The position numbers and the translations under genes are program-made. The notes under the pieces were generated by a model. That model was not told where the DNA came from. It worked only from the letters and a program-made list of their open reading frames with translations, and ran no database searches. A stretch of DNA of 43,673 nt from Candidatus Oscillibacter excrementavium (GTDB lineage Bacteria; Bacillota; Clostridia; Oscillospirales; Oscillospiraceae): contig DWYU01000016.1 in assembly GCA_019118505.1 (NCBI GenBank), positions 1 to 43,673 on the forward strand. The letters run 5' to 3'. Each line of letters opens with the position of its first letter. Position 1 is the stretch's first letter. Of the stretch, positions 26,432 to 42,998 are shown one piece after another.

Positions 26432-26457
26432 GGGTCCGGCTTTGCCGGACCCATTTT
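26432..26457 (+). terminator. Terminator after recN
   Basis: GGGTCCGGC (26432-26440), loop TTT, GCCGGACCC (26444-26452), then ATTTTC. Confidence 0.85.
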
Positions 26458-26461
26458 CATC

Positions 26462-26497
26462 GTTCCGCCTGGGGCGGAATGCCGCAATTCGGAACTC
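26462..26497. repeat. Dispersed intergenic repeat, copy B
   Basis: TTCCGCC-TGG-GGCGGAA is a small palindrome, followed by CCGCAATTCGGAACTC (26482-26497). The latter resembles CCGCAATTCC...CCGAACTC at 30129-30151. Confidence 0.45.
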
Positions 26498-26553
26498 CTG
26501 ACTGGCAAGACATCCCTCTCTCGCATACACTGGCGGGAAGAGGAGGGAAGCCC

Positions 26554-27057
26554 ATGCGCTTTTTCGCAGACTACGACCGCAGCGCCGCTGTGCTGTACGC
26601 CCACCAGTGGGCCTATGGCCGGAACCCGGCCTTCTATGACTATGAGAATTTGGGAGGGGACTGCACCAACTTCGCCTCCCAGTGCGTGTTCGCCGGCAGC
26701 GGCATCATGAACTTCACGCCGGACTTCGGCTGGTACTACATCGACGCCAACCAGAAGTCCCCCTCCTGGACCGGGGTGCCCTACTTCTGGAACTTCATGA
26801 CCCGCGGCACGCCCTCTGTGGGGCCCGTGGCCCAGCCCTGCGCCCTGGAGGACCTGCGGCCCGGGGACCTGGTCCAGCTGAGCTTCAACGGCCAGGAATT
26901 CCAGCACACGCCGGTGGTGGTGCGGGTGACGGCCCCCATCACCCTGGAGACGGTGCTGATCGCCGCCCACAGCTACGACGCCGACAACCGGCCGCTCGCC
27001 ACCTACACCTTCCAGGACATCCGGTTTCTCCACGTGCTGGGCACCATCCGGCCGTAA
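26554..27057 (+). CDS. Amidase-domain protein (Amidase_6, NlpC/P60-like fold)
   Basis: 167 residues. The catalytic Cys is in GGDCTNFASQC (about residue 34), with partner His in FQHTPVVVRV and a second in IAAHSYDADN. NYENLGGDCTNF-type openings are typical of Amidase_6. There is no signal peptide, so a cytoplasmic or mother-cell role, for example at the developing spore, is possible but unproven. AGGAGGG sits 6 bases before the ATG. CATACACT at 26524-26531 resembles a sigma-E -10 box, but no matching -35 is seen. Confidence 0.8.
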   Translation: MRFFADYDRSAAVLYAHQWAYGRNPAFYDYENLGGDCTNFASQCVFAGSGIMNFTPDFGWYYIDANQKSPSWTGVPYFWNFMTRGTPSVGPVAQPCALEDLRPGDLVQLSFNGQEFQHTPVVVRVTAPITLETVLIAAHSYDADNRPLATYTFQDIRFLHVLGTIRP

Positions 27058-39543: not shown

Positions 39544-39650
39544 GGGTACGCTCCTCACGCCGCGCCAGGCGGCAGAAATCACAGATAGGGCAATTATACC
39601 GCACTCCGGGGGAAATTACAACCGCGCCGGGGGCTGCTTTTTGCCGGGCG

Positions 39651-39679
39651 TTGACAATTCCGCCGGATTCCGGTAAAAT
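39651..39679 (+). promoter_or_regulatory. Sigma-A promoter of rnpB
   Basis: TTGACA (39651-39656), 17 bases, TAAAAT (39674-39679): perfect -35 and 5/6 -10. It is followed 8 bases later by the predicted RNA 5' end. Confidence 0.9.
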
Positions 39680-39686
39680 AAACGGG

Positions 39687-40262
39687 CGAGTAAGACAGAC
39701 AGTCGCGCGGCCAGGCCGAAAGGCCGTCCGTGAGGAAAGTCCGGGCTCCACAGGGCAAGGATAACGGGTAACGCCCGCCGAAGGCGACTTCAGGAAAAGT
39801 GCAACAGAGATATACCGCCGGCAGAGTTACTCTGTATCGGTCAGGGAAACAGCGACGGCTGAACGTGATGCCCCGCGGAACGGGGCGAGGGAAACTTCCC
39901 CGAACAGCGCAATCGCCCCCGCGCGGAACAGCGCAGGGGTGTTGTGTGAAGAGGGACGAAGGGTCCCTCTTCGCGATTGAAATCAGCCCGCCGCAGCGGC
40001 CGCTCCCGCAGGGAGCGGTAAGCCACCCTTACCGACAGAGAGTAGCTCTGTCGGTAAGGGTGGAAAGGTGCGGTAAGAGCGCACCCATCGGCTGGAGACT
40101 GTCCGATGCTGTAAACTCTATCCGGAGCAACACCGGTATGGGAGCAGGGGGTCCGACCCCCAGGGCTGGCCCGGCCGCTCCCGGGGTGGCTGGAGCGTAT
40201 CGGCAACGATGCGTCGAGATAGATGACTGTTTGATACAGAACCCGGCTTACAGTCTTGCTCG
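39687..40262 (+). ncRNA. rnpB: RNase P RNA, class A, with a large internal extension
   Basis: Catalytic RNA that matures tRNA 5' ends. Conserved segments are in order: GAGGAAAGTCCGGGCTCC (39731-39748), GGGTAACGCC, GCAACAGAGATATACCGCC (39801-39819), GGTAAGGGTGGAAAGG (40053-40068), TGCGGTAAGAGCGCACC, GTAAACTC..CCGGAGCAACACC, and AGATAGATGACTGTTTGAT then ACAGAACCCGGCTTAC. P1 is CGAGTAAGAC (39687-39696) with GTCTTGCTCG (40253-40262). At about 576 nt it is well above the usual 350-400. The excess lies between ACCGCC (39819) and GGTAAGGGTG (40053): about 233 nt against roughly 23 in E. coli. It contains hairpins at 39870-39886, 39910-39979 (branched), 40000-40018 and 40023-40063. Confidence 0.96.
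40023..40063 (+). repeat. Perfect 18-bp hairpin inside rnpB that pairs with the conserved GGUAAGGGUG core
   Basis: Left arm CCACCCTTACCGACAGAG (40023-40040), loop AGTAG, right arm CTCTGTCGGTAAGGGTGG (40046-40063). The right arm includes the conserved GGTAAGGGTG segment, so the hairpin competes with, or replaces, the normal P10/P11 environment. Confidence 0.85.
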
Positions 40263-40268
40263 TACAAG

Positions 40269-40300
40269 AAGAGGTCCTGGCGAAAGCCAGGTCCTCTTTT
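40269..40300 (+). terminator. Terminator of rnpB
   Basis: AAGAGGTCCTGGC (40269-40281), GAAA tetraloop, GCCAGGTCCTCTTTT (40286-40300) with one T-T mismatch. Confidence 0.85.
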
Positions 40301-40305
40301 GGTCC

Positions 40306-40470
40306 CTATTGGTACCGGTACTGCTGCTGGGTGTACTGGTCGATGCAGCGGAGGAACAGTTCCCGGCTCTGAAAGGCCAGGTACTGCCCGCCCGCCTCCG
40401 GGTGGAAGGAGACCACCCGCCGCACCGGGTCCACCCACAGCTCCCAGAGGGTGGCTGTATTGGTCTCCAT
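40306..40470 (-). CDS. Hypothetical protein, 54 aa
   Basis: Starts METNTATLWELWVDPVRRVV, contains FHPEAGGQYLAF and ends with a Gln/Tyr-rich tail (CIDQYTQQQYRYQ). GAGGAGGTG precedes the ATG at 8 bases, a strong ribosome site. It begins 13 bases after the stop of the truncated XRE-family gene, so was probably co-transcribed with it; no counterpart follows the intact paralogue at 34271. A short soluble beta-type protein; family not recognised. Insertion of the mobile element upstream may have silenced it. Confidence 0.7.
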   Translation of the reverse strand: METNTATLWELWVDPVRRVVSFHPEAGGQYLAFQSRELFLRCIDQYTQQQYRYQ

Positions 40471-41354: not shown

Positions 41355-41365
41355 GGTTCACGCAG
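41349..41365. other. Left attachment junction (attL-like) of the integrative element
   Basis: The XRE coding homology ends at the GGGG run (41351-41354), and the recombinase stop TGA is at 41360-41358. Comparison with the intact paralogue (GAGCGGGGGTTGAG) places the crossover in or next to this G-run. The exact core needs the other end of the element. Confidence 0.65.
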
Positions 41366-42998
41366 TTAAAGATACGGGCTTGGAAAGCTGGTCTATATTG
41401 CCGACAAAGCGGTAAAAGATTTCGATTTCCTGGACCCGGTTTCCCTCGCCGTCTTTGACTGCCTCATGGATCAGGATTTTTTCTATCATGCCATTCAGCA
41501 CATCGGCGGTCAACTCGTTCAAGTCGGTGTATTGTCTCACCAGATCAACCCACTTCTCCGTGTTTACCACCTGTTCCCTTGCTGTTTCAAGCTGGGAATT
41601 TAGTGCTGTAATTTTGGCCTCTAGTTGTTCCTGTTCCTCCTGGTACTTTTGGGAGAGCATAGAGAAATTCCTTGCCGTGATGATTTCCGAAACCCGATCC
41701 TCGTATAGCTTTGCTAACAGGTTATCTAAATCCGAGAGCCGTTTTTCTGCCCGCTTTTTCTCCGCTATCACTCGTTTGTCCCTGGCCTCCTGTTCACGGT
41801 TGGAGGACTGCAACAGGCGGTTTATTACGGCTTGTTCGTCCTGGTGAACAGCGGCGATCCAGAAACGCAGACGGGAGAGAACATAGGAATAGAGCACATC
41901 GTAACGGACATAGTGATTAGAGCAAAGCCCGGTCCCCTGGCCGTATCTGCTACAAGTAAAATAACTGAATGGGCGGCTCACGGTCTTATTGGTGGCGAAA
42001 CGCATGGACCACCCGCAGTCAGCACACTTGACAAGGCCGGAGAAAATTTGTGTGGTCTGGTCCTTCATGGAGCGGCGGCGTGTTGTAATCTGCTCTTGTA
42101 CCCGGTCAAAAACATCTCTTGAAATGATGGCCTCATGGGTATTCTCGATCTTCACCCACTCGCTGGGGTCCTTGCGAATACGCCTCTTATTCTTGTAAGA
42201 GATATTCGTTTCCCGGTAGTGAACGGAGTTGCCGATATAGGTTTCATCTTTCAAAATGCTTTTGACTTGGGCGATGGTCCAGGCGTAACGCTTGCTTTCC
42301 GGCTGATCCTCAAAGATATGGGCGAATGTGCCGTATCTCTGGAAGTTCAGCCATGAGGCGGTGGGAATTTGCTCTTGCGTCAGTATCTTGCAGATTTTGG
42401 CGGCTCCGGCTCCATGATAGGCGAGGTCATAAATCTTGTCGATAATCCAGCGGGTTTCCTCGTCGATCAACAGATGATTTTTATTATCCGGGTCCTTGCG
42501 GTAGCCGATAGGAGCATAAGCAAAAATGCGCTGTCCCTTGGCAAACTTGGCCTTGAAAGCGGCTTTCACCTTGCGGCTGGTGTCCTTGGCGAACCACTCG
42601 TTGAACAGGTTCTTGAACGGCACAAAATCAGACAGGCCCTTGTCGGTGTCCTCGTTGTCGGTCACGGCGATGTAACGAATACCACGCTCCGGGAAGTCGA
42701 ACTCCAAATAGTAGTCCATCTGTATGTGTTCCCGTCCAAACCGGGACAAGTCCTTGGTGACAATGCAGTTAATTTTGCCGCTGTCCACGTCGTTCATCAT
42801 GCGCTTAAAGTCCGGGCGGTCAAAATTGGTGCCGCTCCACCCGTCGTCAACGTATTCATCTACAACGTGCAAACGGTTCTCCTTGGCGTACTGCTGTAAA
42901 ATCGTGCGCTGGGTTTCAATACTGACGCTGTCTCCATATTCTTCATCGTCACGGGAGAGGCGCAGGTACAAAGCTGTATTATAAACGTGCTGTTTCAT
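41358..42998 (-). CDS. Large serine recombinase
   Basis: Catalyses excision and integration of the element. 546 residues: a resolvase domain with nucleophile Ser15 (ALYLRLSRDDE) and SRFGREHIQMDYYLE, a Recombinase domain (about 165-275, GYRKDPDNKNHLLIDEETRWI), a zinc ribbon (CADCGWSMRF ... CSRYGQGTGLCSNH), a long coiled coil (about 400-490, KKRAEKRLSDLDNLLAKLYEDR) and a DUF4368-like end (ILIHEAVKDGEG; EIEIFYRFVG). AAGGAGG sits 8 bases before ATG 42998. The gene ends exactly at the element boundary, usual for such integrases. Confidence 0.97.
   Translation of the reverse strand: MKQHVYNTALYLRLSRDDEEYGDSVSIETQRTILQQYAKENRLHVVDEYVDDGWSGTNFDRPDFKRMMNDVDSGKINCIVTKDLSRFGREHIQMDYYLEFDFPERGIRYIAVTDNEDTDKGLSDFVPFKNLFNEWFAKDTSRKVKAAFKAKFAKGQRIFAYAPIGYRKDPDNKNHLLIDEETRWIIDKIYDLAYHGAGAAKICKILTQEQIPTASWLNFQRYGTFAHIFEDQPESKRYAWTIAQVKSILKDETYIGNSVHYRETNISYKNKRRIRKDPSEWVKIENTHEAIISRDVFDRVQEQITTRRRSMKDQTTQIFSGLVKCADCGWSMRFATNKTVSRPFSYFTCSRYGQGTGLCSNHYVRYDVLYSYVLSRLRFWIAAVHQDEQAVINRLLQSSNREQEARDKRVIAEKKRAEKRLSDLDNLLAKLYEDRVSEIITARNFSMLSQKYQEEQEQLEAKITALNSQLETAREQVVNTEKWVDLVRQYTDLNELTADVLNGMIEKILIHEAVKDGEGNRVQEIEIFYRFVGNIDQLSKPVSLTA

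What the first reader, a model, noticed from the sequence alone, without database searches (positions are those of the whole stretch)
39687..40262. RNase P RNA with an approximately 210-nt extension that buries a conserved core segment in a perfect hairpin
The spacing between the conserved ACCGCC and GGTAAGGGTG blocks is about 233 nt instead of roughly 23 in E. coli M1 RNA. The extra RNA folds into at least five near-perfect hairpins. The last is an 18-bp stem whose 3' arm is the conserved GGUAAGGGUG itself, so the core strand has acquired a complementary partner. Either the core is rearranged, or the hairpin must be opened (by protein or RNA-level switching) or cut out for activity. This could be a regulatable or fragmented RNase P RNA.
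Basis: partly seen in the sequence, partly recalled or inferred. Interest (0 to 1): 0.78.

Follow-up and report, generated by a model that had tools for sequence, protein, structure and literature searches.

The report
RNase P RNA carrying a hairpin-repeat insert
A gut bacterium's RNase P RNA (the tRNA-trimming ribozyme) carries a 233-base insert in a tolerant arm, built around a hairpin-rich repeat also found beside tRNA genes, and the insert brings a mirror copy of the ribozyme's own core strand that gives the RNA two nearly equally stable predicted folds.

Summary
Window 39687-40266 is the only class A RNase P RNA found in this genome. 233 nt separate ACCGCC from GGTAAGGGTG, and a perfect 18-bp hairpin pairs the latter with an inverted copy.

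The extra RNA is an insert in P12, a variable helix. In this genus (Dysosmobacter/Oscillibacter group) P12 is a replacement site: at the same syntenic locus, two of five relatives checked carry an unrelated cassette with break points exactly at ACCGCC and GGTAAGG, and one a third kind.

The cassette contains a low-copy dispersed element, "E" (stem-GATTTCAATCAnCCCGCCGCAGCGGCC-stem). A perfect palindrome of 13 bp or more adjoins E on its right in 27 of 50 copies and on its left in none. At six tRNA genes with E it runs 4-13 nt into the tRNA; in this rnpB it runs 11 nt into the P11 core strand. So the core-burying hairpin looks like a footprint of E plus palindrome growth by template switching, not an RNase P-specific invention.

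Two folds share one strand: a long P12 and the hairpin. They are computed as isoenergetic here; both pairings are kept across 12 species. Whether the hairpin regulates or is tolerated, and whether the RNA is cut, is untested. New variant of a known kind.

The parts
39651..39679 (+). promoter-like site TTGACA-17-TAAAAT just upstream of the RNA start
   Evidence: 11 of 12 consensus positions (consensus match only)
39687..40266 (+). rnpB, class A RNase P RNA, whole gene with insert
   Evidence: RF00010 226.6 bits; only match found in the genome
39814..39819 (+). ACCGCC, P11 5' strand; left break point of the P12 cassette
39820..40052 (+). P12 cassette (233 nt); short or replaced by unrelated sequence in relatives
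39817..39846 (+). left strand S (P12 5' arm, loop, degenerate copy of arm and core); partner of about 40023-40055 in fold A
39847..39939 (+). part of the insert that varies between species, several hairpins
39940..40018 (+). dispersed element E: stem1 (39946-39974), GATTGAAATCAGCCCGCCGCAGCGG, stem2 (40000-40018)
   Evidence: model R1 84.9 bits over 39937-40029; ends set by eye
40023..40040 (+). inverted copy of the P12 3' arm plus core (5' arm of the 18-bp hairpin)
40046..40063 (+). P12 3' arm plus conserved core GGTAAGGGTGG (3' arm of the hairpin)
40276..40301 (+). terminator-like hairpin (40276-40291) with U-rich tail after rnpB
   Evidence: consensus match only

Best explanation
This is the organism's only detected, presumably working class A RNase P RNA. 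Its P12 tip hosts a cassette built around a low-copy dispersed element (E) that often stands immediately left of a palindrome. In rnpB the palindrome is P12 itself, extended outward into the P11 core strand by an inverted copy. Shown: the insert sits in P12; E occurs elsewhere in these genomes; long palindromes adjoin E on one side only; at six tRNA genes and in rnpB the palindrome enters the neighbouring RNA gene; the two arms change together. Inferred: E arrives next to a hairpin, and replication template switching then extends the palindrome and keeps it perfect. The active ribozyme uses the long-P12 fold (A), which leaves P11 intact, and the hairpin (fold B) is a nearly equally stable alternative that the cell tolerates, with protein, tertiary contacts and tRNA pulling towards A.
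For: P12 is variable: 36 of 65 genus rnpB segments (ACAGA to P14) are 100 nt or longer, range 27-304. In the same ligA-murD-rnpB locus, flank identity 89-93%, G005 and G002 have an unrelated cassette; their match to the window stops at 39819 and resumes at 40053. The P12-less window rnpB is 99% identical to G005's over 334 columns. E motif with up to one mismatch: 59 hits in 31 of 86 genus genomes, some of them plain coding matches without the stems, against 2 for the reversed-pattern control. 18 of 100 rnpB sources carry E. An inverted core copy of 8 nt or more is in 12 of 17 measurable E-bearing and 0 of 73 E-lacking rnpBs. A perfect palindrome of 13 bp or more adjoins E on the right in 27 of 50 copies (10 of 18 in rnpB, 17 of 32 elsewhere), on the left in 0 of 50; background 2 of 600. 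At 6 of 6 tRNAs with E the palindrome is 22-28 bp and enters the tRNA by 4-13 nt (E at L092 seen only with R1); among 68 tRNA ends without adjacent E the stems found downstream are at most 19 bp and enter by at most 3 nt, T-arm self-matches and two 4-bp matches aside. The arms co-vary: 99.4% of cells paired, covariation 0.338 against 0.125 shuffled, 0 of 500 shuffles as high. Fold A also stays paired: 106 of 108 proximal P12 cells, wobbles included. Template switching is reported to extend and perfect RNA-gene hairpins (PMC8794818, part 1 of 6 and passages).
Against: Fold B is favoured by 7-10 kcal/mol in 5 of 9 species compared, the two lie within about 1 in 3, and fold A is favoured by 4.4 in 1. 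In L048 and L036 the script found no perfect hairpin, so B was not computed, but the unconstrained optimum lay 4.4 and 8.0 below fold A. No pseudoknot, protein or tertiary term is included. The perfect arms and double changes could equally be selection for the hairpin. Two of the five measures are weak: pairs with double changes (6) were matched by 25 of 500 shuffles, further pair types by 106 of 500. Five E-bearing rnpBs reach only 5-6 nt of core, as E-lacking ones do by chance, and one E-lacking rnpB (L009) showed a loose 13-pair match over the core. 23 of 50 E copies have no right palindrome of 13 bp or more, some because of one or two mismatches, others truly. The tRNA sites with E were found through E; only 30 of 59 tRNA matches of G075 were fetched. 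Model R1 was built partly from rnpB copies and runs a few bases past stem2.
Confidence: 0.66

Rival explanations
1. The hairpin is a selected regulatory device: fold B switches RNase P off (or slows assembly) and a signal, protein or tRNA load flips it to fold A.
For: Near-equal computed energies in the window species; arms perfect in 10 of 12 species and co-varying; the right hairpin tracks its own arm more closely than the left P12 arm does (106 against 101 Watson-Crick cells of 108).
Against: The same palindrome-into-the-gene pattern occurs beside tRNA genes with E, so no RNase P-specific role is needed. The energy gap ranges from -4 to +10 kcal/mol among species, with no tuned value. Close relatives lack it altogether. 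No ligand site or partner is known to me.
Confidence: 0.14
2. The cassette is an intervening sequence: RNase III cuts the long helix, the insert is lost, and RNase P RNA works as two pieces held by P12, as with 23S rRNA IVS elements.
For: Long near-perfect helices in both folds; precedent of an RNase III-excised IVS in an rRNA helix (PMC4990558, abstract); cassettes turn over at a fixed place.
Against: No RNA-end data. A cut in fold B would sever the core strand itself. Nothing in the sequence requires cutting. RNase III was not searched for in this genome.
Confidence: 0.15
3. A decayed or non-functional rnpB, or an assembly artefact.
For: Palindromes can break assemblies; the G058 rnpB match runs to its contig end.
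Against: Only rnpB found in the genome, full model match, promoter-like site and rnpA present. The same arrangement occurs in independent genomes including the one-contig G085.
Confidence: 0.03

Closest known systems
Bacterial class A RNase P RNA (RF00010)
   Same: Full-length covariance match, one copy found, rnpA partner in the genome
   Different: 233-nt P12 cassette with a dispersed repeat and an inverted copy of the P11 core strand
STRR repeats in RNase P RNA of heterocyst-forming cyanobacteria (Vioque 1997; title seen in a reference list; the P12 position is recalled)
   Same: Genomic repeats residing in RNase P RNA; P12 described as sometimes dispensable, e.g. in cyanobacteria (PMC2858038 passages)
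   Different: No tandem repeats here; hairpin element plus core-complementary palindrome instead
23S rRNA intervening sequences (e.g. Coxiella IVS, PMC4990558 abstract)
   Same: Insert in a helix of an essential structural RNA
   Different: Excision not shown here; in RNase P RNA; core-complementary hairpin; the Coxiella IVS holds an ORF and is 428 nt
Template-switch-made RNA hairpins (PMC8794818, part of the text)
   Same: Stem extension, inverted loop copy and paired changes in an RNA gene
   Different: Here linked to a dispersed element and running into the catalytic RNA's conserved core and into tRNA ends
Group IIC introns that insert at terminator motifs (PMC4424553 passages)
   Same: Elements found beside hairpins and terminators
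   Different: E is about 80-100 nt; no intron features were tested for; its mobility is unproven
P12-tip expansions in archaeal and eukaryotic RNase P RNA (PMC12974513 passages); diverged CPR RNase P RNAs with large helix extensions (PMC8172020 passages)
   Same: Helix expansions of RNase P RNA, the former at the same helix tip
   Different: Here at the level of close species, with a dispersed repeat and a core-complementary strand

Membership tests
Class A RNase P RNA (RF00010) | Covariance score above gathering over the full model | tested here: met
   226.6 against 100 bits, positions 1-367
Class A RNase P RNA (RF00010) | Conserved P11 strands ACCGCC and GGUAAGGGUG placed at model positions | tested here: met
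   alignment
Class A RNase P RNA (RF00010) | Catalytic activity on pre-tRNA | not testable with these tools
   no biochemistry; rnpA present
Dispersed element E (defined here) | stem1 - AATCAnCCCGCCGCAGCGG - stem2 | tested here: met
   R1 84.9 bits at 39937-40029; the window copy was one of the 24 rows R1 was built from
Dispersed element E (defined here) | already in Rfam 15 | tested here: not met
   11 loci with E searched at E up to 0.01: only tRNA matches reach gathering scores
Cyanobacterial STRR-type insert | short tandem repeats in the insert | tested here: not met
   0 arrays in 39600-40330 at score 30
23S-type intervening sequence (IVS) | insert at tip of a variable helix | tested here: met
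23S-type intervening sequence (IVS) | excised by RNase III leaving a fragmented RNA | not testable with these tools
   no RNA data
RNA switch (bistable regulatory RNA) | two mutually exclusive conserved folds | tested here: inconclusive
   both folds supported, but hairpin conservation may be mutational
RNA switch (bistable regulatory RNA) | ligand- or condition-dependent change of activity | not testable with these tools
   none
Transposable element (MITE-like) | occupied and empty sites with defined ends | tested here: inconclusive
   rnpB has occupied and replaced sites; E's own ends and any target duplication were not resolved

The most novel reading that the evidence does not exclude
E is a new kind of small mobile or spreading element that installs itself at a hairpin of a structural RNA gene and leaves an inverted copy of the gene's own functional strand (RNase P core, tRNA acceptor end) beside it. 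P12 of rnpB is then a cassette-exchange site for such elements, and the inverted copy makes RNase P RNA a naturally bistable ribozyme that must be chaperoned or switched into its active fold.
Probability: 0.28. Interest if true: 0.82.

Novelty: new variant of a known kind. Interest (0 to 1): 0.62.

Why it matters
RNase P RNA is essential and usually slow to change. Here one helix is replaced wholesale between close relatives, and the replacement puts a perfect rival partner next to the conserved core. That is a natural test of how a large ribozyme finds its fold. It also bears on whether long perfect stems and double compensatory changes in RNA genes come from selection or from template switching, since the same pattern recurs at tRNA ends where no RNase P function is at stake.

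Tried and rejected
Rejected: a second rnpB (one search found none); a misplaced core; tandem-repeat insert; a known Rfam family for E (only tRNA matches at gathering scores); long P12 alone as the cause of the hairpin (33 E-lacking rnpBs with inserts of 80 nt or more share at most 6 nt with the inverted core). Tree of 82 P12-less rnpBs: the 11 full-hairpin (beta) rows are scattered (10 changes, at least 7 forced by starred branches; 192 of 500 label shuffles do as well), so one origin is not supported; it rests on 336 columns, the bootstrap had not settled, and L067 (G058) was cut off and left out.

Rows dropped before counts: of 60 R1 matches, 16 under 23 bits and 12 second copies of a place already counted; with the 18 rnpB copies this leaves the 50. 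L067 is missing because its contig ends inside rnpB. One of the 68 'without E' tRNA ends is a second tRNA in L092.

Led nowhere: covariance model R1 has only 12 pairs because the variable stems align poorly; a weak extra R1 match at 26454-26576 (19.8 bits) does not look like E. Literature: the listings showed no report of this insert or of E in the held open-access library; one search returned no papers, so the Rickettsia palindromic-element parallel stays recalled and unused. Robart 2007 and Vioque 1997 were seen only as reference-list entries.

Glycomyces amatae (L077) shows an independent rnpB with an inverted core copy (13-bp hairpin, long-P12 fold favoured by 2.7 kcal/mol) but no R1 match; not followed further.

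Full report
What is there. The window carries a complete class A RNase P RNA at 39687-40266 (+), 226.6 bits over all 367 model positions. A promoter-like site ends 7 nt upstream and a terminator-like hairpin follows. It is the only match in the 98.45%-complete draft genome, and rnpA is present.

Where the extra RNA sits. The covariance alignment puts the large insert in the P12 loop. Of 86 genus genomes, 66 gave an rnpB. In 65 measured rnpB segments the ACAGA-to-P14 distance ran from 27 to 304 nt, 100 or more in 36. Named records with the same hairpin are Dysosmobacter, Oscillibacter and other Oscillospiraceae, Eubacteriales or Clostridia MAGs, 9 of the 10 stretches found; the tenth is Glycomyces. 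G003 has the same P12 segment as the named record 'Candidatus Oscillibacter excrementigallinarum', and its insert is 99% identical to the window's over the 207 nt compared. Long inserts also occur in other genera of the family: in a set of 30 hand-picked for length or weak score, 8 have more than 150 nt between ACAGA and the core.

P12 is a replacement site. The ligA-murD-rnpB region aligns between the window and five relatives at 88.7-93.3% in its longest block. Against G005 and G002 the alignment stops at 39819 (end of ACCGCC) and resumes at 40053 (start of GGTAAGG), because they carry an unrelated P12 insert. G003 and G085 share the window's insert. G049 has a third kind that shares only the proximal P12 arm. 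The P12-less window rnpB is 99% identical to G005's. A repeat motif of the G005/G002 kind of insert is itself dispersed: 37 of 86 genomes, reversed-pattern control none.

A dispersed element, E. The middle of the insert matched many non-rnpB places in the genus. Aligned, these define stem1 - GATTTCAATCAnCCCGCCGCAGCGGCC - stem2. The core motif with up to one mismatch has 59 hits in 31 of 86 genomes, 1-5 each, against 2 for the control; some of these hits are plain coding matches without the stems. The window's genome has a second strong copy (77.6 bits), downstream of a gene whose end reads like deoD (recalled from its C-terminus, not searched). Of 100 rnpB sources, 18 carry E, including one in another genus (L198, 27.5 bits).

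E and palindromes. For 50 E copies, a perfect palindrome of 13 bp or more adjoins the right end in 27 (10 of 18 in rnpB, 17 of 32 elsewhere) and the left end in none; 2 of 600 random window pieces of the same size have one. At tRNA sites the right arm of the palindrome is the tRNA's terminator plus the tRNA 3' end: 22-28 bp, entering the tRNA by 4-13 nt, in 6 of 6 tRNAs with E (E at L092 was missed by the script's motif and seen with R1). Among 68 tRNA ends without adjacent E, downstream stems are at most 19 bp and enter by at most 3 nt, apart from two 4-bp matches and the rows where only the T-arm itself was found. The E-bearing tRNA sites came from E searches, and only 30 of 59 tRNA matches of G075 were fetched, so this contrast needs an unbiased repeat.

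The hairpin in rnpB. The inverted copy runs different distances into the core side: exactly 11 nt in the window, G003 and G085, 12-14 in five others, 16 in G067 and G070, 8 in L048 and L198 (up to 18 when a mismatch or wobbles are allowed). An exact inverted core copy of 8 nt or more is in 12 of 17 measurable E-bearing rnpBs and in 0 of 73 without E; L067 also has it but could not be measured there. L071 and L072 were found by this very pattern, so the unbiased count is 10 of 15. The other five E-bearing rnpBs show 5-6 nt, within the chance range; in all five the unconstrained fold is fold A. Across 12 species the hairpin is perfect in 10. On 10 distinct rows, 99.4% of cells pair and the covariation score is 0.338 against a shuffled mean of 0.125, 0 of 500 shuffles as high; 6 pairs have changes on both sides, which 25 of 500 shuffles match, and further pair types are matched by 106 of 500. 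Relatedness inflates such scores.

Two folds. The insert has the form S - E - reverse complement of S - core, where S is the P12 hairpin plus a degenerate core copy; the loop of the right copy looks like an inverted rather than a direct copy (by eye). Hence fold A, one long P12 with P11 intact, and fold B, the 18-bp hairpin. In a segment fold without pseudoknots, protein or the rest of the RNA, A minus B is -0.4 kcal/mol in the window, 0.1 and -1.1 in G003 and G085, -4.4 in G041, and +7.0 to +10.3 in five others; in L048 and L036 B was not computed, but the unconstrained optimum lay 4.4 and 8.0 below A. Both pairings are kept: of 108 proximal P12 cells 101 are Watson-Crick, 5 wobble, 2 broken in fold A; 106, 2, 0 in fold B. 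Because the right-hand core copy is the invariant one and the left copy is degenerate, fold A is most likely the active one; this is inference.

Reading. Template switching in replication is reported to extend and perfect hairpins of RNA genes and to invert loops (PMC8794818; part 1 of 6 and passages read). It would account for the variable reach into the core, the perfect arms, the double changes that leave the left P12 arm behind (L052, L072), and the same behaviour at tRNA ends. Selection for the hairpin would account for the first three only. I therefore place the hairpin as a by-product of E plus palindrome growth (0.66), with a regulatory switch (0.14) and an excised intervening sequence (0.15) as live rivals.

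Known and new. Inserts in RNase P RNA and at P12 are known in kind: P12-tip expansions (PMC12974513 passages), repeats in cyanobacterial RNase P RNA (title seen via PMC2858038), extended helices in CPR (PMC8172020 passages), and intervening sequences in 23S rRNA (PMC4990558 abstract). I found no report of this insert, of E, or of a core-complementary hairpin in the listings. The apparently new parts are the turnover of P12 cassettes between close species, the dispersed palindrome-linked element, and the rival partner for the core strand.

Noticed in passing
L077 (Glycomyces amatae, contig NZ_JAJLQZ010000005.1): An actinobacterial rnpB independently carries an inverted copy of the core strand in an extended P12 (13-bp hairpin), with no E match.
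   Followed up: partly
L083, L084, L085, L088, L090, L092: tRNA genes next to E have terminator palindromes of 22-28 bp that run 4-13 nt into the tRNA 3' end.
   Followed up: partly
L054, L056, L063, L025 (P12); similar by eye in L032, L062, L194, L195, L202: A second kind of P12 insert carries a motif like GAGGAGCAGCGnAATGAGTGAGC, itself dispersed in 37 of 86 genus genomes at up to 2 mismatches.
   Followed up: partly
L079, L095, L099, L103: E occurs as two neighbouring copies downstream of a gene whose end reads like deoD (recalled).
   Followed up: no
window 41358-42998 (-): Large serine recombinase (Resolvase, Recombinase, zinc ribbon, DUF4368) about 1.1 kb from rnpB, beyond where the alignment with relatives breaks up.
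   Followed up: no
window 40145-40165: About 13 nt of extra sequence around GGGGGTCCGACCCCC in the P15/P16 region of this rnpB, shown as a small insert in the Rfam alignment.
   Followed up: no
L053 (G045): An rnpB with almost no P12 (27-nt segment), the other extreme in the same genus.
   Followed up: no
L055 and L062 (G031): Two rnpB matches with different P12 cassettes in one binned genome; contamination of the bin is possible but untested.
   Followed up: no
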